DNA of 23,007 nt from IMG/VR virus record IMGVR_UViG_3300029995_000043, positions 1 to 23,007 of that record; one strand, given 5' to 3'. Shown piece by piece: positions 1 through 23,007 of the stretch. Numbering within the stretch: position 1 is the stretch's first letter; every line of letters begins with the position of its first letter. The DNA comes from a virus. The notes below the pieces were generated by a model. It did not search any database. It saw nothing but the letters and a program-made list of their open reading frames with translations, and had not been told where the DNA came from. Both the position numbers and the translations under genes were made by a program.

Positions 1-1
1 G

Positions 2-1984: not shown

Positions 1985-1995
1985 GGAGCCACATC

Positions 1996-2436
1996 ATGGC
2001 ATATGTACCAGGAATTACCAGGTATCAGAAAAAGAAATGGATGGATGAAATTAGTGCAAAAATCACGGCCGGATCTCTCAAAGCTGCAATATATTCGACC
2101 ACGACGGCTCTGGACGCGGCCACAGATCCCACAACACCACTGGCGTACACTACCACTGGGGAACTCACCTCCACCGGGACCGGTTACGCCGCCGGAGGTT
2201 ATGTCCTGGCGACTCCGGCCAGATCATCGACCTTTGCTGCCAATGCCGAGACGTTGGATTTCGCAGACATCACCACTGGGGCGGGAACGATAGCAACTGG
2301 AACCTATGCAATGACCATCTACGATACTACAGACTCCAACCGCATCCTGGCGATATGCACAGTCACGGTTTCCGTGGCATCGTCGAGCACGGCGATGGTA
2401 TTCAGTATCCCCTCTGATTGCATGAAGATTGCGTAA
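1996..2436 (+). CDS. Small phage structural-type protein, 146 aa
   Basis: ATG at 1996 has an ideal SD (AAGGAG, 1983-1988) and starts 11 bases after the tail gene. The protein is Thr/Ala/Gly/Ser-rich and low in charge after a basic start (MAYVPGITRYQKKKWMDEI). The central stretch (GELTSTGTGYAAGGYVLATP, then ETLDFADITTG) resembles a widespread family of small phage proteins coded beside tail fibres, where a TGTGYxAGG motif recurs. The role is unproven; a minor virion or fibre-associated protein is likely from position and composition. It is the last gene of the late transcript, with a terminator 34 bases downstream. Its GC-rich codon use matches the tail gene and contrasts with the AT-rich genes to the right. 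Confidence 0.75.
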   Translation: MAYVPGITRYQKKKWMDEISAKITAGSLKAAIYSTTTALDAATDPTTPLAYTTTGELTSTGTGYAAGGYVLATPARSSTFAANAETLDFADITTGAGTIATGTYAMTIYDTTDSNRILAICTVTVSVASSSTAMVFSIPSDCMKIA

Positions 2437-10970: not shown

Positions 10971-11056
10971 TGGTGCGAGTGGCAGGCATCGAACCTGCAA
11001 GGCTTAGAGCCGTGAGAGCTTAAATCTCATGTGTTTGCCAATTTCACCACACTCGC
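10971..11056 (-). tRNA. tRNA-Leu(UAA)
   Basis: The minus strand folds as a class II tRNA of 86 bases. The acceptor GCGAGTG pairs perfectly with CACTCGC. The anticodon stem TGAGA/TCTCA closes the loop TTTAAGC, with anticodon TAA at 11022-11020. The long variable arm is GGCT-CTA-AGCC, and the T arm is GCAGG-TTCGATG-CCTGC. An A discriminator and encoded CCA follow. It lies within the operon between the 69-aa gene and the DUF669-type gene, so it must be processed from the mRNA or from its own transcript. It decodes TTA, a codon abundant in the AT-rich genes here. Confidence 0.95.
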
Positions 11057-11287: not shown

Positions 11288-11530
11288 TCAATGGTCCGGT
11301 TCACAAACATTAACAACGTAATCAATAACGCCTTGAACCGTATCAATATTTTCAAAAGCATCTTCTTCAATTTTAATATCGAATTCTTCTTCGAGAGCGG
11401 TTTCAAGTTTCAAACAATCGAGAGAATCCATTCCTAAGTCACGAACAAGATTTGCTTCGTTGGTTACTTCATTACTTTCTACCACAAGAACATCTTCGAT
11501 AATGTCTTTAACCTGCTGCTCAATTGTCAT
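11288..11530 (-). CDS. acpP: Acyl carrier protein (phage-encoded)
   Basis: The 80-aa acidic product is a textbook acyl carrier protein. The DSL motif (D35-S36-L37, in LGMDSLDCLKLETALEEEFD) carries the serine that receives 4'-phosphopantetheine, with the expected helix II, acidic helix III and length. ACPs carry acyl chains in fatty-acid, polyketide and lipid pathways, and are also cofactors of some non-lipid enzymes. No phosphopantetheinyl transferase or fatty-acid gene is nearby, so it would rely on host AcpS. It has a good SD (AAGGA, 7-base spacer) and lies in a replication operon just downstream of the AAA ATPase. The phage role is unknown; altering host lipid metabolism or binding a host ACP-interacting protein are hypotheses. 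Confidence 0.93.
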   Translation of the reverse strand: MTIEQQVKDIIEDVLVVESNEVTNEANLVRDLGMDSLDCLKLETALEEEFDIKIEEDAFENIDTVQGVIDYVVNVCEPDH

Positions 11531-12382: not shown

Positions 12383-12652
12383 AGCGACCCCGACTGCGAC
12401 CGCGACCGCGACCGCGACTGCGACTGCGACCGCAACCACGACCCCGACCCCGACTGCAACCACGACCCCGACCGCGACCCCGACTGCGACTGCGACTGCG
12501 ACCGCAACCACGACCCCGACCCCGACTGCAACCACGACCCCGACCGCGACCCCGACTGCGACTGCGACCGCAACCACGACCCCGACCGCGACCCCGACTG
12601 CGACTGCGACCGCAACCACGACCCCGACCCCGACTGCGACCGCGACTGCGAC
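12383..12652. repeat. Degenerate hexanucleotide tandem repeat (45 units of NNCRAC)
   Basis: Forty-five back-to-back hexamers of the form NNCRAC (plus strand: tgcgac, cgcgac, cccgac, cgcaac, cacgac, tgcaac) run without a break, directly abutting the AAA ATPase start codon. A higher-order 72-bp unit is repeated exactly (12419-12490 and 12491-12562), followed by shorter 42-bp versions. GC content is far above the flanks. All six frames are open, giving Val-Ala/Val-Gly, Ser-Gln/Ser-Gly and Arg-Gly/Arg-Ser dipeptides on the minus strand and Thr-Ala/Thr-Pro and Asp-Cys/Asp-Pro on the plus strand. It separates the 113-aa gene from the ATPase gene. Confidence 0.97.
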
Positions 12653-12686
12653 CTATCAAATCCTGTTCTTAGCATGCAAGCGTTCA

Positions 12687-14431: not shown

Positions 14432-14670
14432 ACCGCTTCAGCATGATCCGGTTTAACCATATACCCAAGGCGAGTATATTTAGGTTTGAAGCCCAAATCA
14501 ATATCCTCAATTGTAAGATTAGGAGACGCTGTGCCGTTAGACATTAAACGAACAAATCCGCTGCCGTAATTTGCATAAATAAAACCTTTTCTTTCATAAA
14601 CTTTGCGTTGATTATAAACACCTTTAGTTTTAGTAATTACAACAGCATCGTCAATAATGTTAAAAAGCAT
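14428..14670 (-). CDS. Conserved small phage protein, 80 aa, first gene of the replication operon
   Basis: ATG at 14670 has an AAAGGAG SD; a longer reading to 14724 would start between the divergent promoter elements and lacks an SD. Product: MLFNIIDDAVVITKTKGVYN, KVYERKGFIYANYGSGFVRL, then a negatively charged C-terminal part. The pattern matches an uncharacterised phage family. It is promoter-proximal, about 30-60 bases from the minus-strand promoter, and coupled to the 218-aa gene by ATGA. Confidence 0.8.
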   Translation of the reverse strand: MLFNIIDDAVVITKTKGVYNQRKVYERKGFIYANYGSGFVRLMSNGTASPNLTIEDIDLGFKPKYTRLGYMVKPDHAEAV

Positions 14671-14702
14671 TTTTAAGTTTCTCCTTTCAATTTGTGTAAG
14701 CC

Positions 14703-14731
14703 ACAATCTCACAAAACAATTCAAGTGTCAA
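14703..14731 (-). promoter_or_regulatory. Leftward promoter of the replication operon
   Basis: A perfect -35 (TTGACA, 14731-14726) is followed after 17 bases by a weak -10 (GATTGT, 14708-14703). It points into the 12-kb minus operon. The weak -10 suggests that it may need activation. Confidence 0.5.
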
Positions 14732-14746
14732 GGAATATTTTCTCGA

Positions 14747-14775
14747 TTGACAAAAAAAGTTCCTCGGTGTATGTT
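14747..14775 (+). promoter_or_regulatory. Rightward promoter of the regulator/primase operon
   Basis: TTGACA (14747-14752) and TATGTT (14770-14775) are 17 bp apart and drive the small gene at 14803. The -35 is back-to-back with that of the leftward promoter: TGTCAA and TTGACA are separated by 15 bp, forming an inverted repeat. Confidence 0.65.
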
Positions 14776-14802
14776 GGTCCAAACCCAAAAGGAAGGACTT
14801 GC

Positions 14803-15009
14803 ATGATTAACTCAAATTTACGCATAGTTACACTCGCTTTATTACGAAACAGACCTGCTCATATTAAGCTTTCGGATATTGAAAATCATACCTCATTGAC
14901 AACAGACTGGCTCAAATCGTTTATGAAACGTGGCGATAATTGCGACTCCGGTTCGGATAAAATTGTCACGCTTTACGAATATCTGACGAAATCAAAAATT
15001 AAAATTTAA
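14803..15009 (+). CDS. Small helix-turn-helix-type putative regulator, 68 aa
   Basis: ATG at 14803 has a GGAAGGA SD; the longer frame from 14692 would start upstream of the promoter. The product (MINSNLRIVTLALLRNRPAH, then KLSDIENHTSLTTDWLKSFM and a C-terminal LYEYLTKSK helix) has the size and helix pattern of small Cro/C1-like phage DNA-binding proteins, with the SDIENHTSLTTDWLKSF segment as the candidate HTH. It sits at a divergent promoter, the usual place for a switch regulator, and is followed after 26 bases by the primase-helicase gene. The assignment is from layout and weak motif only. Confidence 0.65.
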   Translation: MINSNLRIVTLALLRNRPAHIKLSDIENHTSLTTDWLKSFMKRGDNCDSGSDKIVTLYEYLTKSKIKI

Positions 15010-15035
15010 ACATGCTTCAATATATTGGAGTTTAA

Positions 15036-17441
15036 ATGTCATTCGATTTAATACCGAAAGAATTGCAAAGTCTTCCGCAATTTATTTGTTGGAAGTATGT
15101 GCAAGAACAAGGTAGTGAAAAACCTACTAAAGTACCAATAAATCCACATACAGGGCAATACGCAAGTCCCACAAATCCTGAGCATTGGGGTTCGTTCGAA
15201 CTTGCTTGTTCCGTTGCCTACAAAGTTGACGGTATTGGTTTTGTTATAACTAAAGACGACCCTTTTTTATGTTTAGATTTCGATCCTACTAACGATCCTG
15301 AAATATTAAAACGACAAAATTTAATATATAACGCTTTCAATTCGTATTCCGAAATCTCGCCTTCTGGAAAAGGCTGTCATTTATGGATAAAAGCCAAAGT
15401 TCCAACAAATAGAAACAGAGCTTTAGTTGAAATTTATACAGCAGGTCATTATATGACTATGACGGGGAATGTTTGTAGAAACGAACCTGTTAAAGAATAT
15501 CAAAGTCTAGCTTCTCAATTGTGGGAAGAAATGCAAACTAAAATAGTAAACGAAGGACAACATTTAGATAAAACTGAAACAATGTCTGACTATGATGTTT
15601 TAGTAGCAGCTTCAAGTGCTGTTAACGGTGAAAAGTTCATTGATATTTTTGAAGGACGTTGGGCTAAATACTTTCCGTTTGAAGCTGAAAAAGGAAAAAG
15701 TGATTGTAACGAGGCAGATCAAGCTTTATGCAATATGCTTGCATTTTATACGCAAAATCGTGAACAAATTAAACGTATATTTAGAACAAGTGTTTTAGGC
15801 CAAAGAACTAAAGCTAAACGTGAAGATTATTTTGAAAACCCTAAATGGGGAATGCTGAATAAAGCTTTCGATAAAATGCCGCTTGAGATCAACATGGACG
15901 AGTTAAGGAACAATCTTGAGCAGCAGCTTGCAGTTAAGAGGCAAGAGGCAGCAGTTAAGGGGGAAGTGCCAGCAGTTAAGAGGCAAAGCTTAGACGAAGC
16001 CCTAGAAGCCTCTAGCCCTATCGCTTGCATACATGTAACTTCTAATATATCTGAAAAACAGAATATAGAAAAATCTGAATATCTAAATATATCAAAATTT
16101 GAATATAACGTGCCTCCTGGCCTTGTTGGAGACATAGCAAAATTCATATACTCTGCTGCACCTCGTCCTGTACCTGAAATTGCTATCGCTGGCGCTATCG
16201 GTTTAATGTCTGGTATTTGTGGCAGATCATACAATATAAGCGGAACAGGTCTTAACACATACACTTTTTTACTTGCTAAAACTGGAAGGGGAAAGGAAGC
16301 TATGGGGCGGGGGATGAACAAGCTAATTGCTTGTGCTTCTAAAACTGTTCCTGCTGCTAATACTTTCATCGGGCCTAGTCGCATATCATCACCGCAAGCA
16401 TTGGTAAAGTTTCTATCTAAAAGTTCTAACTCCTTTGTTTCTATACTTGGAGAGTTCGCCGATACTTTAAAGCGAATGTCAAATGATAGTAGAAACCCAA
16501 TTCAACAAGATGTTCGTATTGCTATGCTGGACCTTTACAATAAATCAGGTCACGGTGACGTTTTAGGAAGTCTTATCTATTCAGATAAAGACAAAAATAC
16601 TGACGTTTTTAACGCTCCTTCTTTTTCGGTAATAGGTGAAGCCACTCCTGAAAAGTTTTACGAACTACTTTCTAAATCTATGATTGATGAAGGTCTTTTG
16701 CCACGTTGCACAATTATTGAATATCATGGCAACCGAACCGAGTTAAATGAAGATCATGACAAAGCAACCCCTTCTCAACAGTTAATAGACCAATTCTCTT
16801 CACTATGCGCCTACTCGTTGCAGTTAAACAACGGAAATAATGTCAAGCTAGTTCAGTTAAGTGATGAAGCTAAAAAACTAATTGACGACTTTAATATAAG
16901 CTGCGATAAAAAAATAAATACTGGTGATAGTATTGCTAGTGAACTATGGTCCCGCGCTCATATCAAGGTGCTAAAACTTGCGGCGCTCCTTGCAGTAGGT
17001 TGCAACTATATCAATCCTGTAATAAACACCGAATGTGCTATGTGGGCATTGCAGCTAATAACTAATGACGTGCTAAATCTCCTTTCTAAATTTGAGGCTG
17101 GAACTATTGGAGCAGCTAACGTTCAAAACGATCAAGTAACAGATATAAAGAAAGGTTTTAAACGCTACGTTACAAGCACGTGGGAGGAAGTTTCTAAACT
17201 CCCTGGTTCAACATTGCTTACCCATTCGATTCGAGTAGTACCACATTCTTTTATATCCGCCTTTTGCCGTCAACGTGCGTCATTTAAAAATGATCGTATG
17301 GGACCGATACAAGCCGTTAACAATTGTCTTAAAAACCTTATCGAGTGTGACGATATTCGTGAATTATCCCCACATGATAAAAAGCAAAAAGGACTCGCTA
17401 GTAACGCTAAACTTTATATGGTTTCAGGGATGCAATTGTAA
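15036..17441 (+). CDS. Primase-helicase (primase-polymerase-like N-terminus, DUF3987 C-terminus)
   Basis: An 801-aa two-domain replication protein with a TTGGAG SD. N-terminal domain (~1-170): KPTKVPINPHTG, LCLDFDP (D81, D83), SPSGKGCHLWIKA (S110-H115) and VEIYTAGHYMTMTG, the D-x-D/SGKG-x-H pattern of phage primase-polymerase-like domains. A helical region follows, then a low-complexity linker with three heptapeptides AVKRQEA/AVKGEVP/AVKRQSL (299-319). From ~350 the DUF3987 helicase/ATPase domain begins, with a P-loop-like AKTGRGK (414-420) and an FVSILGEFADTL Walker-B-region. It likely primes and unwinds at the phage origin. The linker DNA carries 21-bp iterons and an AT-rich tract. The 3' end overlaps a convergent small gene by 28 bases. 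Confidence 0.88.
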   Translation: MSFDLIPKELQSLPQFICWKYVQEQGSEKPTKVPINPHTGQYASPTNPEHWGSFELACSVAYKVDGIGFVITKDDPFLCLDFDPTNDPEILKRQNLIYNAFNSYSEISPSGKGCHLWIKAKVPTNRNRALVEIYTAGHYMTMTGNVCRNEPVKEYQSLASQLWEEMQTKIVNEGQHLDKTETMSDYDVLVAASSAVNGEKFIDIFEGRWAKYFPFEAEKGKSDCNEADQALCNMLAFYTQNREQIKRIFRTSVLGQRTKAKREDYFENPKWGMLNKAFDKMPLEINMDELRNNLEQQLAVKRQEAAVKGEVPAVKRQSLDEALEASSPIACIHVTSNISEKQNIEKSEYLNISKFEYNVPPGLVGDIAKFIYSAAPRPVPEIAIAGAIGLMSGICGRSYNISGTGLNTYTFLLAKTGRGKEAMGRGMNKLIACASKTVPAANTFIGPSRISSPQALVKFLSKSSNSFVSILGEFADTLKRMSNDSRNPIQQDVRIAMLDLYNKSGHGDVLGSLIYSDKDKNTDVFNAPSFSVIGEATPEKFYELLSKSMIDEGLLPRCTIIEYHGNRTELNEDHDKATPSQQLIDQFSSLCAYSLQLNNGNNVKLVQLSDEAKKLIDDFNISCDKKINTGDSIASELWSRAHIKVLKLAALLAVGCNYINPVINTECAMWALQLITNDVLNLLSKFEAGTIGAANVQNDQVTDIKKGFKRYVTSTWEEVSKLPGSTLLTHSIRVVPHSFISAFCRQRASFKNDRMGPIQAVNNCLKNLIECDDIRELSPHDKKQKGLASNAKLYMVSGMQL
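15931..15986 (+). repeat. Three 21-bp-spaced iterons inside the primase-helicase gene
   Basis: CAGTTAAG occurs at 15931, 15952 and 15973, exactly 21 bp apart; the first and third continue identically (CAGTTAAGAGGCAA), the middle as CAGTTAAGGGGGAA. The same 14-bp word recurs in non-coding DNA at 18.4 and 18.95 kb. The spacing of two helical turns and the presence of related copies outside genes suggest protein-binding sites, not just a peptide repeat. Confidence 0.75.
16037..16109. other. AT-rich tract next to iterons, candidate unwinding element
   Basis: A run of A/T-rich sequence with GAATAT at 16061, 16077 and 16101 lies 50 bases downstream of the iterons, inside the linker-coding part of the primase-helicase gene. 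A 5-bp inverted repeat (ctaga-agcc-tctag, 16002-16015) lies between. This matches the iteron/inverted-repeat/AT-rich layout of lambdoid origins. Confidence 0.45.
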
Positions 17442-17545
17442 AAGTTAAATTGTGCTTTTATTAGTTTCTTGTATTCTTCTATGCTTTTGTATTCATCTTC
17501 TAACGTATAGTAAGTTTTACCATTTATTAAATGAGCGTATCTCAT
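17414..17545 (-). CDS. 43-aa small phage protein
   Basis: ATG at 17545 has an AAAGGG SD about 8 bases upstream, right after the stop of the 47-aa gene. The product starts MRYAHLINGKTYYTLEDEYK and continues with a Lys/Glu-rich helix (SIEEYKKLIKAQ). No family is recognised. It overlaps the convergent 3' end of the primase-helicase gene by 28 bases and is the last gene of the minus-strand early block. Confidence 0.6.
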   Translation of the reverse strand: MRYAHLINGKTYYTLEDEYKSIEEYKKLIKAQFNFYNCIPETI

Positions 17546-17560
17546 TTGGTTTGCCCTTTC

Positions 17561-17704
17561 CTATTCAGCTATAAAAGTAATTGAATCTTCATCGTTGTCG
17601 CAACAGGTATATCCGTACTGCTCCATTACCCTTGCTATATCTTCCCTGCATTCAGCCGATAACCTTTGACCTGTTTCATCGTCATACGTTTCGAGTGCTA
17701 GCAT
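17561..17704 (-). CDS. 47-aa acidic small phage protein
   Basis: ATG at 17704 has a strong AAGGAG SD with an 8-base spacer. The product begins MLALETYDDETGQRLSAECR and ends CCDNDEDSITFIAE; it is acidic, with three cysteines. The leader shares 13 bases (attagctcctttc on the plus strand) with the leader of the next gene upstream. Function unknown. Confidence 0.68.
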   Translation of the reverse strand: MLALETYDDETGQRLSAECREDIARVMEQYGYTCCDNDEDSITFIAE

Positions 17705-17725
17705 ATGATTAGCTCCTTTCAAAAG

Positions 17726-18094
17726 TTAACAATAAATCAAACCATCATCGCCAACATACAAATTTATCTCTCCGTATTCTTTACACTTTGCCGTTAATAA
17801 ATCGCCGTGTTCGGGCCAATCTCCATCCCAAAAACCAGCGCCGTGGCCGTTACGTGTTAACCAGAAGTCATGACCAGCTTGGCTCAAATCGTCTTGAATC
17901 ATTGTCATGTTTTCAGCTTGAAACATTGCGCAATCAATATTTATTTGTGTGAGACATTCGGCAGATATATCATAAATATCATAATTTGCGTCAAGCGGCT
18001 CGTCGTTATCATCTGTTGAACTCCATAAAGCACATTCAACATAAGCTATTGTAAAAATATCTAGCTCCATAAAATCTCTAATATCGGCTTTCAT
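17726..18094 (-). CDS. Conserved phage protein (FWLTRNGHGAGFWD family), 122 aa
   Basis: ATG at 18094 has an AAAGGAG SD; the frame continues upstream to 18145 without an SD, so the shorter form is preferred. The C-terminal half holds AGHDFWLTRNGHGAGFWDGD and then LTAKCKEYGEINLYVGDDG, a signature I recognise from a widespread phage family of unknown function. The N-terminal half is acidic. It is part of the early small-gene block. Confidence 0.85.
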   Translation of the reverse strand: MKADIRDFMELDIFTIAYVECALWSSTDDNDEPLDANYDIYDISAECLTQINIDCAMFQAENMTMIQDDLSQAGHDFWLTRNGHGAGFWDGDWPEHGDLLTAKCKEYGEINLYVGDDGLIYC

Positions 18095-18177
18095 TTTATT
18101 AGCTCCTTTCCTCTTTATGTTTGTTGCGCGCTTGGATTGCATCATATTGATATTCGTGGCAAGCCTGTATTAAGCTG

Positions 18178-18378
18178 TTAATAAACACGTTTAATAAATC
18201 TGCCGGTACGATAGCGTTTGATTTCGAATTTGTCTTTACCGTTCGAGTACAAGTATAGAGTACCTACCTTGTCGGCGTCAATGTCTTTGTCAAATTGATT
18301 AAGACGGCCACGGTTAGCGGTTTGTTTTACAAGACGCTTTGCCTCGGTATAGGCTATTGCTATTTCATTTTCAGGCAT
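18178..18378 (-). CDS. Small hypothetical protein, 66 aa
   Basis: ATG at 18378 has an AGGAA-type SD in a leader identical over 22 bases to that of the 94-aa gene at 21177. The product is basic, starting MPENEIAIAYTEAKRLVKQT and ending KRYRTGRFIKRVY. No family is recognised; nucleic-acid binding is possible from charge. Confidence 0.68.
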   Translation of the reverse strand: MPENEIAIAYTEAKRLVKQTANRGRLNQFDKDIDADKVGTLYLYSNGKDKFEIKRYRTGRFIKRVY

Positions 18379-18410
18379 GATTAAATTCCTTTCGTTTTGG
18401 TATTTGGTTG

Positions 18411-18443
18411 CAGTTAATGTAATTGACGACAGTTAAGCAGTAA
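18411..18443 (+). repeat. Two iteron-like CAGTTAA copies, intergenic
   Basis: CAGTTAA at 18411 and CAGTTAAGCAGTAA at 18430 are 19 bp apart in the 54-base gap between two small genes; the second overlaps the stop codon of the 68-aa gene. They belong to the same word family as the copies in the primase gene and at 18.95 kb. Confidence 0.6.
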
Positions 18444-18639
18444 ATGACATTATGGCTAATTTATGCCAGCCGTTTTCTGTCATTATATCACCTTTTTCAA
18501 GTATTAAGTTTTTGTGATAGTTTTGCGCTTCAATTAAATTATTAAAGCTTGACAGTATTTTATATTTGCAATTCCAATGTTCGTTTGTATCTTCTTTCCA
18601 AACGTCTTCGATAATTTCAACAACGTCATATCTGTTCAT
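18433..18639 (-). CDS. Small hypothetical protein, 68 aa
   Basis: The ATG overlaps the stop of the 100-aa gene as ATGA. Product: MNRYDVVEIIEDVWKEDTNE, then CKYKILSSFNNLIEAQNYHK and a short C-terminal beta stretch. No family is recognised. Likely translationally coupled to its upstream partner. Confidence 0.7.
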   Translation of the reverse strand: MNRYDVVEIIEDVWKEDTNEHWNCKYKILSSFNNLIEAQNYHKNLILEKGDIMTENGWHKLAIMSFTA

Positions 18640-18938
18640 TTTGTCACTTCCATAATTTTATAAATACGTCCGTAAACTATAGTACGTAAGGCTGTTTTGT
18701 TTGGTGCATATACTGAATAAATACCGCTTTCAGTTTGATACCAGTACAATTTTAGAAACGGTTTAAAATTGAATTGCCAGCCGTGTATTCTATATGATCC
18801 TGAGTGCATTAAATTATCAATTCCAAACATACAACCAGATTGGAATTTTTCTTTTAAAAACTCTTTTTCGGTTTTACCATTTAAAATATCAGGTTGATTT
18901 ATATTTGTTTTGGTTTTGTTAAATCTATAAGCATTCAT
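18636..18938 (-). CDS. Hypothetical protein, 100 aa
   Basis: ATG at 18938 has an AAAGGGG SD (spacer ~6). The product (MNAYRFNKTKTNINQPDILN ... ending TIVYGRIYKIMEVTK) is basic and rich in Tyr/Phe/Trp with mixed alpha/beta character. No motif recognised. The SD region is adjacent to the 21-bp-spaced repeat at 18952-19000, so binding there could affect this gene's transcription. Confidence 0.7.
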   Translation of the reverse strand: MNAYRFNKTKTNINQPDILNGKTEKEFLKEKFQSGCMFGIDNLMHSGSYRIHGWQFNFKPFLKLYWYQTESGIYSVYAPNKTALRTIVYGRIYKIMEVTK

Positions 18939-18951
18939 TTTAAACCCCTTT

Positions 18952-19000
18952 CAGTTAAGTAGTAAGTCAAGACAGTTAAGTAGCAATGCTTAACAGTTAA
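18952..19000 (+). repeat. Three 21-bp-spaced iterons, intergenic
   Basis: CAGTTAA starts at 18952, 18973 and 18994, each exactly 21 bp apart. The first two continue as CAGTTAAGTAGTAA and CAGTTAAGTAGCAA, and the third sits in a near-palindrome (TTAACAGTTAA). The array fills the gap between the 31-aa gene and the 100-aa gene, overlapping the stop codon of the former. The sequence and spacing match the array inside the primase-helicase gene. Confidence 0.8.
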
Positions 19001-19092
19001 CGTCTATTGGTTTTATCTTCAAACTCAATAAACAGATTTTCAATATCCTCATCATCCATTTCCAGAATTACAATTCCGTGTTTATTGCACAT
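18997..19092 (-). CDS. 31-aa acidic microprotein
   Basis: ATG at 19092 has a strong AAGGAAGG SD with a 6-base spacer. Product: MCNKHGIVILEMDDEDIENL then a short acidic end (FIEFEDKTNRR). It is too short for family assignment; good SD and placement two bases after the upstream stop support translation. Its stop codon overlaps the third iteron copy. Confidence 0.55.
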   Translation of the reverse strand: MCNKHGIVILEMDDEDIENLFIEFEDKTNRR

Positions 19093-19094
19093 GA

Positions 19095-19277
19095 CTAACC
19101 TTCCTTTCTATAAAGTTTATGAACAAAGTTTCTCGGATACAAAACACTTGAATAACAATCGTTAATTCCTGGCCCACATTCCCATTCAGGACCGGCAAAA
19201 CGTTCTATTGTTTTTAAGTGAGCTTTCTTACTGCTGATTACGTGCAGTTCGGTTTCAGTTTGGTTTATTATGCGCAT
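19095..19277 (-). CDS. Small hypothetical protein, 60 aa
   Basis: ATG at 19277 has a GGAG SD (8-base spacer) inside the end of the upstream gene; a TTG 18 bases earlier is rejected. Product: MRIINQTETELHVISSKKAH, then LKTIERFAGPEWECGPGIND and a basic C-terminus. Two cysteines; no family recognised. One base separates it from the upstream stop. Confidence 0.7.
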   Translation of the reverse strand: MRIINQTETELHVISSKKAHLKTIERFAGPEWECGPGINDCYSSVLYPRNFVHKLYRKEG

Positions 19278-19278
19278 G

Positions 19279-19566
19279 TTAATTTCTCCGTTCAAAAGTC
19301 ATATTATCGGCAAAGGGTATTGTTTCATTATTAAATTTGACAAACCATTTGCCTTTATCTTGATAAACGTTAAAACCTAAATCGAATTGGTTGGCCGTTT
19401 GATTAATTCTAGTTTTAGTAGTTGCTGTTAGCCATCCGCCAGAATTAAGAGTTATAATTTTTTGATCGAAAGATACTACAACAGTTTGATGAAAAGTTAC
19501 TAAGGTAACTCCGTTTGTTGCTGCTACTGTAGTATTGCCTTTTCCAATTTTAAATTGATTTGCCAT
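19279..19566 (-). CDS. Conserved phage protein (VTLVTFHQTxVV ... LNSGGWLTATTKTRINQ family), 95 aa
   Basis: ATG at 19566 has an AAGGTAGG SD (8-base spacer). The sequence VTLVTFHQTVVVSFDQKIIT, LNSGGWLTATTKTRINQTAN and QFDLGFNVYQDKGKWFVKF is a signature I recognise in many tailed-phage genomes. It is beta-rich and its function is unknown. It belongs to the early block and is followed one base later by the 60-aa gene. Confidence 0.85.
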   Translation of the reverse strand: MANQFKIGKGNTTVAATNGVTLVTFHQTVVVSFDQKIITLNSGGWLTATTKTRINQTANQFDLGFNVYQDKGKWFVKFNNETIPFADNMTFERRN

Positions 19567-19583
19567 GATAAACACCTACCTTT

Positions 19584-19946
19584 CTATTTAATTGAGTTTT
19601 TGAGGTCAGTTATTTGTTGTTCTAGTCCAGGCAATGAATAACTACTAAATACAATACCGCCACCGTATGACTTGTTGTTATACTTTCTGCCGCCGATTTT
19701 ATTCATCAGTTTGCAAGTCATTGCGTATTTTTCTTTTTCGTCAACCCATGTTTTAGGCATGCATTGCAGGAAGTGAACAACGTAGCGAGGATTGCCACAA
19801 TACTCGTTATTGATACGAGTCCAGCGATAAGCATTACGCTCTTTATCATCAGCCTCAATTGCTTGTTTTGCTACTCTAGCAATAGCAGTTAAGCTACCTG
19901 TATTACCCTCAGCCATTGTCAATATGTTTTCCATAGCTTGTTTCAT
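19584..19946 (-). CDS. Phage protein, 120 aa, probably conserved
   Basis: ATG at 19946 follows an AAGGAG SD located in the last codons of the upstream 44-aa gene. An N-terminal helical part (MKQAMENILTMAEGNTGSLT, then AIARVAKQAIEADDKERN) precedes an aromatic and basic middle (YRWTRINNEYCGNPRYVVHF) and a Gly-rich stretch (GGRKYNNKSYGGGIVF). The arrangement resembles early phage hypothetical proteins; function unknown. Confidence 0.75.
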   Translation of the reverse strand: MKQAMENILTMAEGNTGSLTAIARVAKQAIEADDKERNAYRWTRINNEYCGNPRYVVHFLQCMPKTWVDEKEKYAMTCKLMNKIGGRKYNNKSYGGGIVFSSYSLPGLEQQITDLKNSIK

Positions 19947-19950
19947 TGTC

Positions 19951-20085
19951 TCAATTCTCCTTTATAGGTTTAATTGTAGGGATACACGTTTTACAATACT
20001 TTGCGGCTAGTGTCGCTTTTTCTAGTGACTTATGACGGCTTATTGTTTCACCTGATTCGTTTATTAGTTCATATTTAAATATCAT
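19951..20085 (-). CDS. 44-aa small protein
   Basis: The ATG (20085-20083) overlaps the upstream TGA as ATGA, and the stop is four bases before the next ATG. Product: MIFKYELINESGETISRHKS, then LEKATLAAKYCKTCIPTIKP; it is basic with a CxxC pair (C33, C36) that might bind metal. No family recognised. Its final codons contain the SD of the 120-aa gene. Confidence 0.68.
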   Translation of the reverse strand: MIFKYELINESGETISRHKSLEKATLAAKYCKTCIPTIKPIKEN

Positions 20086-20294
20086 TTTATACCGCCTTTA
20101 TATCTGAATTGATCCGCTATTACTTCGATATAACCTTTTTCATGCAAACGGTTTATAGCGTTAACGGTAGGTTTATCATTGAGCTTGAATGAGTGCCATT
20201 GAGGATATTTAAAAGCAAAGTCTAAAAGGTTACATTGATTTTTACCTATTGTAATCATAGGTTTTGCGCCACCGTAGTGTATTGTTAGTTTCAT
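20082..20294 (-). CDS. Small protein with winged-helix-like C-terminus, 70 aa
   Basis: ATG at 20294 has a GAGGTG SD with a 6-base spacer. After a short beta start (MKLTIHYGGAKPMITIGKNQ) the segment KPTVNAINRLHEKGYIEVIA, then DQFRYKGG, looks like the recognition helix and wing of a winged-helix domain. It may bind DNA as an early regulator; the assignment is by pattern only. It is coupled to the 44-aa gene. Confidence 0.65.
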   Translation of the reverse strand: MKLTIHYGGAKPMITIGKNQCNLLDFAFKYPQWHSFKLNDKPTVNAINRLHEKGYIEVIADQFRYKGGIK

Positions 20295-20304
20295 AGTTAA
20301 CACC

Positions 20305-20601
20305 TCACTGTAATTTGTATGTAAACTGATAATTGTGTTTGTTGACAGTTAACCAAGTTTTGATAGCTTGCGTAATTTCTTTTTCAGGTTGATTCGATGA
20401 ACAGAAGAAATACCAGACTTTTCCATTTTGTATTGATTCTTGACACAATACGCCGTGACAGTTAAGAGTAAATTTCTCATTGATATATGATACTTTGACA
20501 GTATTCTTTGTCGTTTTAAGTATCTCAATATCAATTGTGCCACCTGATTTAAACAGACTGTCAACTATTTGTTTGTTAGTTCCGGCGGTTAATGTTTTCA
20601 T
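20305..20601 (-). CDS. Hypothetical early protein, 98 aa
   Basis: ATG at 20601 has an AAGGAG SD with an 8-base spacer; the longer frame to 20673 lacks one. Product: MKTLTAGTNKQIVDSLFKSG, TIDIEILKTTKNTVKVSYIN, a CHGVLCQES segment and a C-terminal helix (ITQAIKTWLTVNKHNY). Unknown family. Two CAGTTAA words (20346, 20459) fall inside it. Confidence 0.7.
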   Translation of the reverse strand: MKTLTAGTNKQIVDSLFKSGGTIDIEILKTTKNTVKVSYINEKFTLNCHGVLCQESIQNGKVWYFFCSSNQPEKEITQAIKTWLTVNKHNYQFTYKLQ

Positions 20602-20627
20602 GTTGTTAACTCCTTTTGTGGGTAATA

Positions 20628-20729
20628 TTAATCTATTATATACGGTTTTTTGTAAGAGCATGGCAACATGCAAGAGCTACATTTAAAACCAAGATAGTTA
20701 CATTTTTCTGGTACAAGTCCGTTTTTCAT
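20628..20729 (-). CDS. 33-aa four-cysteine microprotein
   Basis: ATG at 20729 has an AAGGA SD with a 6-base spacer. Product: MKNGLVPEKCNYLGFKCSSC followed by MLPCSYKK; the cysteines (C10, C17, C20, C25) form a compact C-x6-C-x2-C-x4-C pattern that could bind one zinc. No family recognised. Spacing from neighbours fits the tightly packed block. Confidence 0.6.
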   Translation of the reverse strand: MKNGLVPEKCNYLGFKCSSCMLPCSYKKPYIID

Positions 20730-20740
20730 GATCGTTCCTT

Positions 20741-20914
20741 TCAGTTTAATTTATGATGGATACCGGAAGACGGATTGACAAAATATCCACCGTAAACATG
20801 TTTCGCGTGATATGCTCCAATACGTTTTGCTAATCTTTCAGCTCTTACGAGTTCAAAATCTTCTATGATATCATTATTAAACTCTTCAGATACTATTTCA
20901 AAATTAAAATACAT
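20741..20914 (-). CDS. 57-aa hypothetical protein
   Basis: The frame starts at ATG 20914, overlapping the last 22 bases of the 94-aa gene in another frame, and ends 11 bases before the 33-aa gene. Product: MYFNFEIVSEEFNNDIIEDF, ELVRAERLAKRIGAYHAKHV, then a Gly/Tyr-rich end. The SD is weak (GAAG-type). It is plausible because it fills the gap exactly, but the start is uncertain. Confidence 0.5.
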   Translation of the reverse strand: MYFNFEIVSEEFNNDIIEDFELVRAERLAKRIGAYHAKHVYGGYFVNPSSGIHHKLN

Positions 20915-21177
20915 TGGTCAGTATCTTCAATTGTAGCTTTGCAAGGCGTTCCGTCAATATCAAACATTGCAAAGATTGCTTTTCCTGTTGCACGTTGACG
21001 CAATACTTCACATTTATCGGTTTTTGCAAATACACAATCATTTGTTTTCAATTCAACAAATGAGCCGCTAACAAACAATTCAGGCATGCGATTAAATAAG
21101 ACAAAGAAAGCTTGTTCCCATACGTCAATTTCTACGTGTTTTGTGTTATGGTCTATAGCCTTTTGAATGAGTTCCAT
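20893..21177 (-). CDS. Hypothetical early protein, 94 aa
   Basis: ATG at 21177 has an AGGAA SD in a leader identical over 22 bases to that of the 66-aa gene at 18378. Product: MELIQKAIDHNTKHVEIDVW, EQAFFVLFNRMPELFVSGSF, then a beta-rich Cys-containing C-terminus. No family recognised. It is the first gene left of the 516-bp non-coding region, so a promoter is expected just upstream, but I do not see a clear one. Confidence 0.7.
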   Translation of the reverse strand: MELIQKAIDHNTKHVEIDVWEQAFFVLFNRMPELFVSGSFVELKTNDCVFAKTDKCEVLRQRATGKAIFAMFDIDGTPCKATIEDTDQCILILK

Positions 21178-21333
21178 GATTAAATTCCTTTCGTTTCGTT
21201 GATACTTTATACATTGCAGTCAACATGCCAAAACTAACAATTTGTTATTTATTTTATAAGTAAGTGTTTTAACTATATTTTATATTTTAAAACCCTTTCT
21301 TGTCTTTTCTCATTTAATTCAAAAGTAACAAAC

Positions 21334-21425
21334 TTTGTCACCGCTTATGTCATTTATTGTCACTTGCTACACAAGTATTTGATTTTACTATCCTTTTTAG
21401 TGACAAAATTTGCTACCGAAGTGAC
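21334..21425. repeat. Inverted array of four GTGAC half-sites
   Basis: TTTGTCAC (21334) and ATTGTCACTT (21356) face GTGACAAA (21400) and AAGTGACG (GTGAC at 21421). The two left copies are 22 bp apart and the two right copies 21 bp apart, in opposite orientation. TTGCTAC is also repeated (21364 and around 21409). The layout resembles an operator or initiator-binding region. Confidence 0.6.
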
Positions 21426-21560
21426 GATTTATGGCAATGCTCCTGTAACGCTCTGCCCGGCCTATACGCTTGCCCACATATTGAGGCATGCTATCTATCG
21501 CGCCTCGTGCCGTTTGCCCTTCCTGGAGCGTCCCATGAAGCCGATTTTGTCCTCATGGGG
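21426..21560. other. GC-rich non-coding island, candidate structured RNA or foreign insert
   Basis: About 135 bases are visibly GC-richer than the AT-rich flanks and hold inverted repeats: GAGGC/GCCTC around 21483-21515 and the perfect 7-bp CCCATGA (21532-21538)/TCATGGG (21553-21559). Overlapping plus-strand frames exist but have no SD, and no convincing gene covers it on the minus strand. Together with the AT-rich stretch to 21178, this forms the 516-base gene-free interval between the 94-aa gene and the 76-aa gene. Confidence 0.45.
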
Positions 21561-21567
21561 TCTTAAA

Positions 21568-21606
21568 ACAATAAAAAGAAAGCCACCTGGAACAATAGGT
21601 GACTTT
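21568..21606 (-). terminator. Rho-independent terminator of the rightmost early transcript
   Basis: Read on the minus strand, a 10-bp stem (AAAGTCACCT/AGGTGGCTTT, one T-G wobble) with an 8-base loop is followed by CTTTTTATTGTTTT. It ends the transcript of the 62-, 97- and 76-aa genes. Confidence 0.82.
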
Positions 21607-21693
21607 CAGTCTTACTTATTTAGTTATAACGCCGCTTTTAAACGGCTGATACATAATATACCTCCTGAAATAGTTTTTCTTTCTGTTAAAACT

Positions 21694-21924
21694 TTATTGA
21701 ATACTTTCTTCCAAAGCCGCAATAACACAATCCATATTATCAAAAGCTTCTTGCAAAGCATTCGCTGCTGTTTCGCAAGCTTCACCTCTTTCCGACATTT
21801 GCAAACCTTCAGGCATGTTATCAAAGGATTCTTGTTCTTCACATTGTAACTCTTCAATTTGATTTTTTAAATCTTCTAACTGCTCCTGAATTTTGGTTAT
21901 TGTTTTGCGTCTTGCGTTGTTCAT
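21694..21924 (-). CDS. Conserved phage coiled-coil protein, 76 aa
   Basis: ATG at 21924 has a GGAG SD (8-base spacer). Product: MNNARRKTITKIQEQLEDLK, NQIEELQCEEQESFDNMPEG, then ACETAANALQEAFDNMDCVI. This acidic, heptad-rich pattern with the EQExFDNMPE motif is familiar from many tailed phages as an uncharacterised early protein. It is the last gene before a terminator. Confidence 0.85.
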   Translation of the reverse strand: MNNARRKTITKIQEQLEDLKNQIEELQCEEQESFDNMPEGLQMSERGEACETAANALQEAFDNMDCVIAALEESIQ

Positions 21925-21940
21925 TTTGTTATCTCCTTTT

Positions 21941-22234
21941 CTATTTTAATGTTCTGTTACGCTCGTTCAATAATTCTGAAAACTGGCTGACGAAGGTTTC
22001 ATCTACAGCTAAAGGATGATCCATCTCAAATAGTATTGCGTGAACAGTTTCATGATCGAGTGCTAGAGTCAAAGCCTTTTCTGTAATTTCAGGATTAAGC
22101 ACAATTCTCTGTAACTCACTCAAACACAAACCTTCGTATTCAGCGTTACCAAAGCAACGATTAGCAGCGGTCATGGTTTCATCATAAGATATAAACCATG
22201 TTTTGTTATTTAGTTTGAATGAGCGCGGTTTCAT
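21941..22234 (-). CDS. Putative HExxH zinc-metallopeptidase-like phage protein, 97 aa
   Basis: The product contains H61-E-T-V-H65 in LALDHETVHAILFEMDH, the zincin core motif, with acidic residues further on (D78, E79) that could provide the third ligand. The overall pattern (an ILNP-like strand, the HExxHA helix, then EtFVSQFSELL) matches small phage zincin-like proteins. Whether it cleaves a substrate is unknown. The ATG is one base after the upstream stop; the SD is weak (AGGG). Confidence 0.72.
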   Translation of the reverse strand: MKPRSFKLNNKTWFISYDETMTAANRCFGNAEYEGLCLSELQRIVLNPEITEKALTLALDHETVHAILFEMDHPLAVDETFVSQFSELLNERNRTLK

Positions 22235-22235
22235 G

Positions 22236-22424
22236 TTATGCCCTAACTACGTTGTCGCAATCAATAAGGGTAAAATAGTCTTTGCATTTGCCGCTGTTTA
22301 CCGCTTTAACACATCCTGCATCATAAGATGCACCGTCGTCATTGCGATTGTAGCGATACCATTTATCATAGAAGCCAGCAAGCCTATTGTTGTAGCCGCG
22401 TTGTTCGTCGGTGAGGGTTTTCAT
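22236..22424 (-). CDS. Small hypothetical early protein, 62 aa
   Basis: ATG at 22424 has an AAGGA SD (8-base spacer). Product: MKTLTDEQRGYNNRLAGFYD, KWYRYNRNDDGASYDAGCVK, then a Cys/Asp-rich end. It is Tyr/Asn/Asp-rich with three cysteines and no recognised motif. It is the first gene of the rightmost minus transcript, downstream of a candidate promoter at 22459-22487. Confidence 0.7.
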   Translation of the reverse strand: MKTLTDEQRGYNNRLAGFYDKWYRYNRNDDGASYDAGCVKAVNSGKCKDYFTLIDCDNVVRA

Positions 22425-23007
22425 TTTGTTTGTCCTTTCTTTCTCATTCTTTAAATATACTTTATCAAACCTAATTATCGTTGTAAATACTTTATTTCAA
22501 TCTTTTTATTGCTAAACACATATACTATTATAATGCTAATATCATGCCAATAAAGTAACCAAACAAACTAAATTACACATACGAAAACTATTTCTAAGCA
22601 TACCGTCCTATTGCTCAAACAATCAAACACTCTACAGGGCTTTATATTGCGTTTAAAGATATAATTCAAGTATTGATATGTTCATATTATAAGCGTTATA
22701 ACTTCAAGTATAATTTCAATTGGTATGATAGTTGCTATAACAATACATTCAACTTCTAATATATATTAAAACGGGGATTCCCGTAACGGAGAATATAGTA
22801 ATATGTTTTGCTGAATATACTAATATACCCATACCCTCCTCCACTATTCCCCGCCCTATTAAATATAGAAATATATATTACTATATTATCGTTGTTGTGA
22901 TCGTTTGAGTATATTTTTATATTCCTCTCCTGTTCAGTCAATCCCGCAAACATATATCTATATCTATACCCCCATATCTGAATGTCTGGAACTTTTTGTT
23001 CGAAGAC
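22425..23007. other. AT-rich gene-free region
   Basis: These 583 bases hold no convincing gene; one 65-codon minus-strand frame (22953-22756) has no SD and reads as low complexity. Visible features are a 5-bp-stem hairpin (ACGGG-gatt-CCCGT, 22771-22784), a perfect 13-bp inverted repeat (aatatagtaatat at 22792-22804 and its complement at 22875-22887) and repeated TATA/ATAT words. It probably contains early promoters or another control region at the edge of the early block. Confidence 0.5.
22459..22487 (-). promoter_or_regulatory. Candidate early promoter
   Basis: On the minus strand TTTACA (22487-22482) and TAAAGT (22464-22459) are 17 bp apart, upstream of the 62-aa gene. The -35 matches consensus at five of six positions and the -10 at four. 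In this AT-rich DNA chance matches are common, so support is moderate. Confidence 0.4.

What the first reader, a model, noticed from the sequence alone, without database searches (positions are those of the whole stretch)
15931..19000. Dispersed 14-bp iteron family CAGTTAAGnrGyAA with two 21-bp-spaced triplets
CAGTTAA appears 14 times by my reading in 15.9-20.5 kb, always on the plus strand (15931, 15952, 15973, 16779, 16821, 16854, 18411, 18430, 18952, 18973, 18994, 19886, 20346, 20459), but only once that I can find in the first 15.9 kb (6060). About 0.5 would be expected per strand in 5 kb of this composition. Two sets of three copies are each spaced exactly 21 bp: one in coding DNA (15931-15986) and one intergenic (18952-19000). 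Several copies share the longer form CAGTTAAGnrGyAA. The same word and spacing in coding and non-coding DNA argues for a DNA-binding protein, such as a replication initiator or an early regulator.
Basis: partly seen in the sequence, partly recalled or inferred. Interest (0 to 1): 0.82.

Follow-up and report, generated by a model that had tools for sequence, protein, structure and literature searches.

The report
Repeated switch sites before phage genes
A group of uncultured bacterial viruses carries the same short two-part DNA signal, usually doubled, just in front of many small early genes and, in some of them, again inside a DNA-copying gene; it looks like a control site read by one still unknown factor.

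Summary
The word and both triplets are real, but CAGTTAA is only half of a bipartite unit. Read along the minus-strand early genes the unit is (C)TTAACTG-N7-TT(G/A)(C/A)Y. It is often in tandem, usually ends next to the Shine-Dalgarno sequence, and in 16 of 55 clusters begins at the previous gene's stop codon. It recurs in eight other environmental phage records.

In six phages the early-gene regions hold 120 TTAACTG in the sense direction and 4 in the other; TT follows at +14 in 87 of 120.

The 21-bp phase is not constant: one alignable array has spacings 21,21 in the window, 21,21,19 in G006 and 19,19 in L152. Some leaders stay alike while the genes around them do not.

The coding triplet is a true array: full units lie antisense in the primase linker of three phages beyond protein-preserving shuffles.

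Best reading: direction-specific operators of the early operon, working like stoperators or start-associated sequences. The binder is unknown. RNA-level control and a lambda-like origin remain rivals.

The parts
18980..19001 (-). Leader array, unit 1 (GTTAACTG-N7-TTGCTAC); its TAA would end a short 31-codon ORF read by eye
   Evidence: PWM 21.0 bits; box A at 18994-19000
18959..18980 (-). Leader array, unit 2 (CTTAACTG-N7-TTACTAC)
   Evidence: PWM 23.6; 21 bp from unit 1
18938..18959 (-). Leader array, unit 3; the Shine-Dalgarno AAAGGGG lies in its N7, start codon of the 100-aa ORF follows 13 nt after TTAACTG
   Evidence: PWM 14.7; distance 13
18416..18437 (-). Second leader pair, unit 1; its TAA is the stop codon of ORF 18433-18639
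   Evidence: PWM 22.1; stop overlap
18397..18418 (-). Second leader pair, unit 2, 19 bp from unit 1, 32 nt before the start of ORF 18178-18378
   Evidence: PWM 15.0
15917..15938 (-). Primase-linker array, unit 3 (box A plus weak box B), antisense to the primase
   Evidence: PWM 14.4
15938..15959 (-). Primase-linker array, unit 2, full bipartite unit (CTTAACTGCTGCCTCTTGCCTC)
   Evidence: PWM 26.4; protein-preserving shuffles 0 of 1500 as high
15959..15980 (-). Primase-linker array, unit 1
   Evidence: PWM 18.3
16840..16861 (-). Single full unit antisense in the primase, outside the linker (box A 16854-16860)
   Evidence: PWM 16.6
16779..16827 (-). Two bare box A words antisense in the primase (16779, 16821); the same two codon contexts carry the word in G006 and L152
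16040..16099 (.). AT-richest 60 nt of the primase gene (83% AT), following the linker array
15036..17441 (+). Primase-helicase gene (PHROG 3022), convergent to the early operon, host of the linker array
   Evidence: E 2.4e-215
14803..15009 (+). 68-aa helix-turn-helix-like protein beside the primase; candidate binder by position and co-occurrence only
18636..18938 (-). 100-aa ORF behind the leader triplet
18178..18378 (-). 66-aa ORF behind the second leader pair

Best explanation
The repeats are asymmetric, bipartite, operator-like elements, (C)TTAACTG-N7-TT(G/A)(C/A)Y, in one or more tandem copies. [quoted passage not shown] SHOWN by sequence: the unit, its internal spacing, its orientation, its place between stop codon and Shine-Dalgarno, its recurrence in related phages, and selection for it within coding DNA. 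INFERRED: one sequence-specific protein binds the DNA and acts mainly on RNA polymerase coming from the early operon, lowering or stopping transcription at gene boundaries (early shut-off or staging) and limiting read-through into the primase gene, i.e. a stoperator-like action. The binder could be the 68-aa helix-turn-helix-like protein encoded beside the primase, another phage protein, or a host protein.
For: 120 sense against 4 antisense TTAACTG in the early regions of six phages; TT at +14 in 87 of 120. PWM above 12 bits: 84 hits in the early regions of five phages against 3 on the opposite strands of the whole records (trained on 74 units from the same early regions). Full units antisense in the primase linker of window, G006 and L162, in two reading frames in L162, beyond protein-preserving shuffles: P below 1/1500, 0.016 and 0.0013; such copies are not in the primase mRNA as TTAACTG, which speaks for DNA (or antisense transcripts). 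G003, G004 and G017 have hairpins at the convergent junction and no primase words, while window, G006 and L152 have weaker or no hairpins and do have primase words. L5 stoperators are likewise asymmetric, short-intergenic and oriented with transcription (PMC9283540, passages). Every record that reaches the primase locus also has the 68-aa protein gene, 8 of 8.
Against: No binding or expression data. In 27 of 41 clusters with a nearby start the last TTAACTG is 25-34 nt from ATG, and 4 more at 13 nt, which also fits RNA-level control. Only 4 of 20 primase words in six phages have TT at +14, and L152's primase has the word but no full unit. The terminator correlation is soft: the hairpin energies of G006 (-13.1) and G017 (-14.8) are close, G024 has neither primase words nor a strong hairpin in the 450 nt looked at, and kinship confounds it. 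G017 has one unit-like hit in the primase-sense direction (16.0 bits). No tyrosine integrase was found in six partial records, so a prophage-silencing role has no support. Spacing between units of 7 to 42 bp fits no simple protein-protein contact on one DNA face.
Confidence: 0.48

Rival explanations
1. RNA-level leader operator: a protein or small RNA binds UUAACUG-N7-UUG in the mRNA between stop codon and Shine-Dalgarno and controls translation, or marks a processing site.
For: Sense orientation; tight distance to ATG, with the Shine-Dalgarno inside the N7 in the 13-nt cases; start of the element at the stop codon in 16 of 55 clusters; tolerance of spacing changes.
Against: Full units antisense in three primase genes under nucleotide-level selection, unless antisense transcripts are the target. 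TTAACTG is no more unpaired than AT-matched words (0.522 against 0.518, p 0.78). No Rfam match at gathering threshold in 14500-23007.
Confidence: 0.24
2. Lambda-like origin: the primase-linker array is a set of iterons with an AT-rich unwinding stretch beside it, and the leader units are secondary sites of the initiator.
For: Linker arrays in window, G006 and L162; the AT-richest 60 nt of the primase gene follow the array in window and G006; the arrangement resembles the lambda origin inside a replication gene (described in PMC11447400, passage).
Against: G003, G004 and G017 have no array in the primase and L152 has no full unit there, though all have leader units; the leader units outnumber and predate any need of an origin; the linker is a low-constraint region where AT-rich codons are expected.
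Confidence: 0.1
3. The elements are mainly homology joints at which small genes are exchanged, for example by the phage's own Sak4/exonuclease recombination, and persist for that reason.
For: Leaders 80-89% alike with flanking proteins that do not align well: G006:4417/L152:3158, G003:3316/G004:12811, G003:2018/G004:11447, G003:655/G004:9893.
Against: A joint needs identity, not a fixed bipartite consensus with a constant gap shared by otherwise different leaders; orientation and start-codon distance; the pair G003:1537/G004:10891 does show homology downstream (score 68). Likely a by-product.
Confidence: 0.08
4. Phage-specific promoters: each unit or pair is a promoter for the gene behind it.
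For: Oriented, about 20 bp, fixed internal gap, just before genes.
Against: No -10-like block seen between unit and ATG in the leaders (by eye); sigma-70-like sites in 14500-23007 are not above shuffles, 34 against 32.1; no sigma-70 region 4 in six partial records; T7-like RNA polymerase not found, but that control rang nowhere and is uninformative; antisense copies in the primase.
Confidence: 0.06

Closest known systems
Stoperators of cluster A mycobacteriophages (L5 type; PMC9283540, passages read)
   Same: Asymmetric sites, many per genome, in short intergenic gaps, oriented with transcription; recognised there by a monomer with two DNA-binding domains, which a bipartite site would suit.
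   Different: Other sequence; here bipartite units usually in tandem and abutting the Shine-Dalgarno, plus an array inside the primase gene; no repressor or integrase identified, silencing untested.
Start-associated sequences (SAS/ESAS) of cluster K mycobacteriophages (PMC3203893 and PMC12699233, passages read)
   Same: Short asymmetric repeats immediately upstream of gene starts, mostly in one orientation, shared by leaders of different gene families; function unknown.
   Different: GGGATAGGAGCCC, and ESAS are inverted repeats; here direct tandem bipartite units.
21-22-bp repeats of T1-like phages TLS and Stevie (PMC11447400 and PMC4319613, passages read)
   Same: Intergenic, asymmetric, oriented with transcription, upstream of starts; a two-block consensus with a TTG in the second block (aaATAGCACnnnTTGnTAAAA in TLS).
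   Different: Other first block and gap; about 76 bases from the start codon in TLS; not described there as tandem or inside the primase gene.
26-bp repeat of Citrobacter phage Mordin (PMC4611695, passage read)
   Same: Repeat upstream of the translation starts of 8 small genes, likened to SAS.
   Different: Other sequence, single copies as described.
Lambda origin iterons inside a replication gene (named in PMC11447400, passage; details recalled)
   Same: Direct repeats within a replication gene, with AT-rich DNA beside them in window and G006.
   Different: Here the same unit is also spread over early-gene leaders, and relatives with leader units lack the in-gene array.

Membership tests
Stoperator system (L5 type) | Asymmetric sites, in short intergenic gaps, one orientation relative to transcription | tested here: met
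   120 against 4 in the early regions of six phages; placement
Stoperator system (L5 type) | Consensus of the L5 family | not tested
   The L5 13-mer was not scanned; the sequence here is a different one
Stoperator system (L5 type) | Cognate repressor of a temperate phage | tested here: inconclusive
   No tyrosine integrase in six partial records; only a 68-aa candidate HTH protein
Stoperator system (L5 type) | Orientation-dependent block of transcription elongation | not testable with these tools
   Needs a reporter assay
Start-associated sequences (cluster K) | Immediately upstream of gene starts, mostly one orientation | tested here: met
   27 of 41 clusters with a nearby start are 25-34 nt away, 4 more at 13 nt
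Start-associated sequences (cluster K) | GGGATAGGAGCCC core, ESAS inverted repeats | tested here: not met
   The consensus found de novo is TTAACTG-N7-TT in direct repeats
T1-like intergenic repeat | ATAGCAC-nnn-TTGnTAAAA | tested here: not met
   Consensus differs in first block and gap
Replication iterons with an AT-rich region | Clustered direct repeats next to AT-rich DNA in or by a replication gene | tested here: inconclusive
   Seen in the primase linker of window and G006; no such array in G003, G004, G017, L152
Replication iterons with an AT-rich region | Constant spacing of the repeats | tested here: not met
   21, 19 and other spacings
Sigma-70 promoter | -35 and -10 hexamers 16-18 apart | tested here: not met
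   34 sites against 32.1 in shuffles for 14500-23007; none made by the unit itself
Integron cassette site (attC) | Imperfect inverted repeat plus a tyrosine integrase (features recalled) | tested here: not met
   Copies are direct repeats; no PF00589 match in six partial records

The most novel reading that the evidence does not exclude
One phage-encoded initiator-regulator uses the same bipartite word as origin iterons hidden in the primase linker and as direction-specific stop sites before many early genes, so that replication start and early-gene shut-off are one switch; the word also serves as the joint at which small genes are exchanged.
Probability: 0.1. Interest if true: 0.86.

Novelty: new variant of a known kind. 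Interest (0 to 1): 0.62.

Why it matters
Oriented, start-side repeats have been described in T1-like, Felix-O1-like and cluster K phages without a known function (passages). This family has a sharp bipartite consensus, 120 early-region copies of its first box in six phages, leaders that stay alike where neighbouring genes do not, and an in-gene array shown by codon shuffling to be under nucleotide-level selection. That gives a concrete probe to fish for the binder and to decide whether such repeats act on DNA or on RNA.

Tried and rejected
Chance or composition: rejected. A plain protein heptad repeat (AVKRQEA/AVKGEVP/AVKRQ) as the whole story for 15931-15986: rejected, because shuffles that keep protein and codon usage do not give the words or the full units, and L162 holds the array in two reading frames. 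Tandem duplication inflates the window's own count, so G006 and L162 carry more weight.

I searched whole records for 14 of those loci, chosen mainly by site density, plus the records of L006 and L007. G005 is a lysine-rich coding repeat (read) and G009 has the same site spacings, so both were set aside. Others of the 14 (G007, G008, G010-G016) show few sites and were not pursued. G018/L133 has one pair and weak bias (21 against 11); not pursued. The only three bacterial-genome matches are 21-bp-periodic stretches shared by Verrucomicrobiales contigs that look like coding repeats, no host clue.

My first 19-bp pattern was mis-specified (N5 instead of N7) and was corrected; a Shine-Dalgarno-linked pattern found nothing, partly because its gap before AAGGAG was too narrow a guess. 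Of the six loci examined, L159, L160 and L167 look like chance or coding matches; L162, L166 and L075 were kept.

RNA accessibility gave no signal. Strand-biased 7-mers in KL1, QH3, MiCath and Lucius gave no TTAACTG family; L007 and L155, 40%-identical primase relatives, have no site in the stretches held. The host could not be named. The PF00940 search is uninformative because its control rang nowhere.

Text searches: TTAACTG as a whole word with phage, 0 papers; CTTAACTG and CAGTTAAG inside words with phage, 183 and 247 papers, of which only the first 10 listings each were seen, mostly about macrophages, none read. Absence from print is therefore not shown.

Limits of counts: gene calls come from my own simple caller, and one search uses five phages. 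In one search only leaders with two or more units and an ATG preceded by a Shine-Dalgarno-like word were paired (44 leaders, 459 cross-phage pairs; best 22 printed). The PWM was trained on 74 early-region units already chosen for TT at +14, so its early-region hits in those five phages are not independent; primase genes, L152, L162, L166 and L075 were outside the training. Shuffles: 2000, 5000, 1500.
Full report
OBSERVATION. All 15 CAGTTAA positions are as reported and all on the + strand (4.82 expected on both strands, 0 of 100 shuffles as high). Both triplets are spaced 21 bp. The exact 14-mer occurs five times. The window is a virus record of 23,007 bases; IMGVR_UViG_3300030491_000021 (G001) is the same phage over the 11,902 bases compared, with one mismatch.

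SETTING. The window carries genes matching DNA polymerase, processivity factor, helicase, Cas4-domain exonuclease, Sak4 and primase families, the last PHROG 3022. The primase (15036-17441, +) and a 68-aa protein (14803-15009, +) face small genes on the minus strand (17561-22424). The repeats read TTAACTG along those minus-strand genes. The nearest named relatives of the primase are about 45% identical (Pseudomonas, Variovorax, Burkholderia phages), and KL1 and QH3 have a similar gene order.

RELATIVES. Pattern scans and a primase-profile scan of viral contigs gave eight further records with the element: G003 (3300025030_000289), G004 (3300025030_000062), G006 (3300036884_000010), G017 (3300050132_000164), G019/L152 (3300020045_001610), G021/L162 (3300025000_000404; the contig begins inside the primase, so only the primase array is seen), G022/L166 (3300050132_000132; leaders only) and G024/L075 (3300025000_000676). 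The scans used exact patterns, so this is a lower bound. In five phages compared gene by gene (window, G003, G004, G006, G017) seven protein clusters are shared by all, among them the 68-aa protein and the primase. Counting the window, eight of nine phages have the 68-aa protein; G022 shows neither it nor the primase, its arrays lying near one contig end.

THE UNIT. Aligning the last copy of 37 tandem clusters in five phages shows C before TTAACTG in 28, and T at +14 and at +15 in 34 of 37 each. In six phages 87 of 120 early-region TTAACTG have TT at +14, against a TT frequency of 0.093. Spacing between neighbours (up to 45 nt apart) in five phages: 21 (20 of 44), 19 (13), 9 (2), 23 (2), and 7, 14, 17, 18, 27, 35, 42 (one each). 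In one array that aligns between window, G006 and L152, the joint TTGCTACTTAACTG (21) of the window and G006 is TTGCCTTAACTG (19) in L152, so the helical phase is not conserved while the gap inside the unit is.

PLACE. Of 55 clusters in five phages, 41 have a called start within 90 nt; 27 of these have the last TTAACTG 25-34 nt before ATG and 4 at exactly 13, where the Shine-Dalgarno lies inside the N7. In 16 of 55 the TAA of the first TTAACTG is the stop codon of the gene before. Not every cluster is a leader: 14 of 55 have no called start within 90 nt, and one G003 pair precedes a terminator instead. Early regions of six phages hold 120 copies in the sense direction and 4 in the other; in all 242,834 bases held of these six there are also 20 antisense to the primase, 11 elsewhere on that strand and 26 on the opposite strand.

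CODING COPIES. Three primases carry 6 (window), 9 (G006) and 5 (L152) CAGTTAA; synonymous shuffles give means of 1.08, 2.06 and 1.16, with 0 of 2000, 0 of 2000 and P 0.0016. G003, G004 and G017 have none. L162's partial primase has 3, P 0.069 for the bare word. Full units antisense to the primase (PWM above 15 bits) number 3, 2 and 3 in window, G006 and L162, with P below 1/1500, 0.016 and 0.0013; the best-scoring ones lie in the linker after the conserved LEQQLA-like stretch, while one each in window and G006 lies outside it. L162 has its three in two reading frames, two of them 19 bp apart. Against this, L152 has the word but no full unit, only 4 of 20 primase words in six phages have TT at +14, and G017 has one unit-like hit in the primase-sense direction. 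The AT-richest 60 nt of the primase gene follow or overlap the end of the linker array in window and G006, not in the other four.

GENE-INDEPENDENCE. Leaders G006:4417 and L152:3158 are 89% alike over 82 columns, while the proteins after and before them give alignment scores of only 24 and 14; G003:3316/G004:12811, G003:2018/G004:11447 and G003:655/G004:9893 behave likewise (80-89%; scores 14-34). The most similar pair, G003:1537/G004:10891 (97%), does show some homology downstream (score 68). Gene exchange at these leaders is a likely by-product.

TERMINATORS. At the junction of early operon and primase, G003, G004 and G017 have 50-nt minimum energies of -22.8, -26.4 and -14.8 kcal/mol and no primase words; window, G006 and L152 have -9.7, -13.1 and -8.4 and do have primase words. 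G006 and G017 differ little in energy, and G024 has neither primase words nor a strong hairpin in the 450 nt examined (-13.6). The pattern suits sites that stop read-through, but it is soft and kinship confounds it.

BINDER. The 68-aa protein is predicted as four helices (mean pLDDT 81.7, six sequences). Its PDB matches are weak (none at E up to 0.001, best 2.1) and include the AcrIIA15 N-terminal domain, Aca11, HipB and SinR, which I recall as Xre-like. It has no Pfam match at E up to 0.1. It is a candidate by position and co-occurrence only; a related gene sits beside the primase in phages without the element as well. No sigma-70 region 4 or tyrosine integrase was found in six partial records.

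KNOWN KIND. Oriented, start-side or intergenic phage repeats are known: L5-type stoperators (PMC9283540), SAS/ESAS (PMC3203893, PMC12699233), the TLS and Stevie repeats (PMC11447400, PMC4319613) and the Mordin repeat (PMC4611695); I read passages of these papers only. The family here has its own sequence and, unlike those descriptions as far as read, tandem bipartite units plus an array in the primase gene. I file it as a new variant of that loose kind, not as a member of any one of them.

VERDICT. Real, conserved and functional-looking. DNA-level, direction-specific control of the early operon is the best reading (0.48), RNA-level control next (0.24), then a lambda-like origin for the primase array (0.1).

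Noticed in passing
window 12384-12653: Array of about 45 hexamers (GCGACC) at the 5' side of the Sak4 gene; it may lie upstream of, or extend, the Sak4 reading frame.
   Followed up: no
window 11288-11530: Small ORF that looks by eye like an acyl carrier protein (LGMDSLD); a homologue is in all five phages compared. No family search was run on it.
   Followed up: no
window 1-2436: G+C of about 0.52-0.54 in the tail-side ORFs against about 0.31-0.49 in the rest.
   Followed up: no
window 10971-11056: A tRNA-Leu (TAA) gene on the minus strand.
   Followed up: no
L143:9853-12112 (G017) and L130:6582-7631 (G006): Transposon genes inside the early regions: an IS21-like transposase/IstB pair and an OrfB_IS605/TnpB-like gene.
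   Followed up: partly
G017 junction of early operon and primase, near 36.5-36.6 kb: A terminator-like hairpin whose loop is TTAACTG.
   Followed up: no
L149 22637-29222 (QH3) and L148 22443-28751 (KL1): Strand-biased words such as GCTTGAC (8 against 0 in QH3) and CATCGAA (8 against 0 in KL1) in the small-gene region; possibly promoters with a shared spacer.
   Followed up: no
G006 early region (L130): Another repeat family rich in CGGCGCTGACCTTTACGG-like words (CGGCGCT 20 copies on one strand, 0 on the other).
   Followed up: no
G004 51433-51636 and 72422-72616: Two copies of the 68-aa HTH-like gene, one near the polymerase genes and one near the primase.
   Followed up: no
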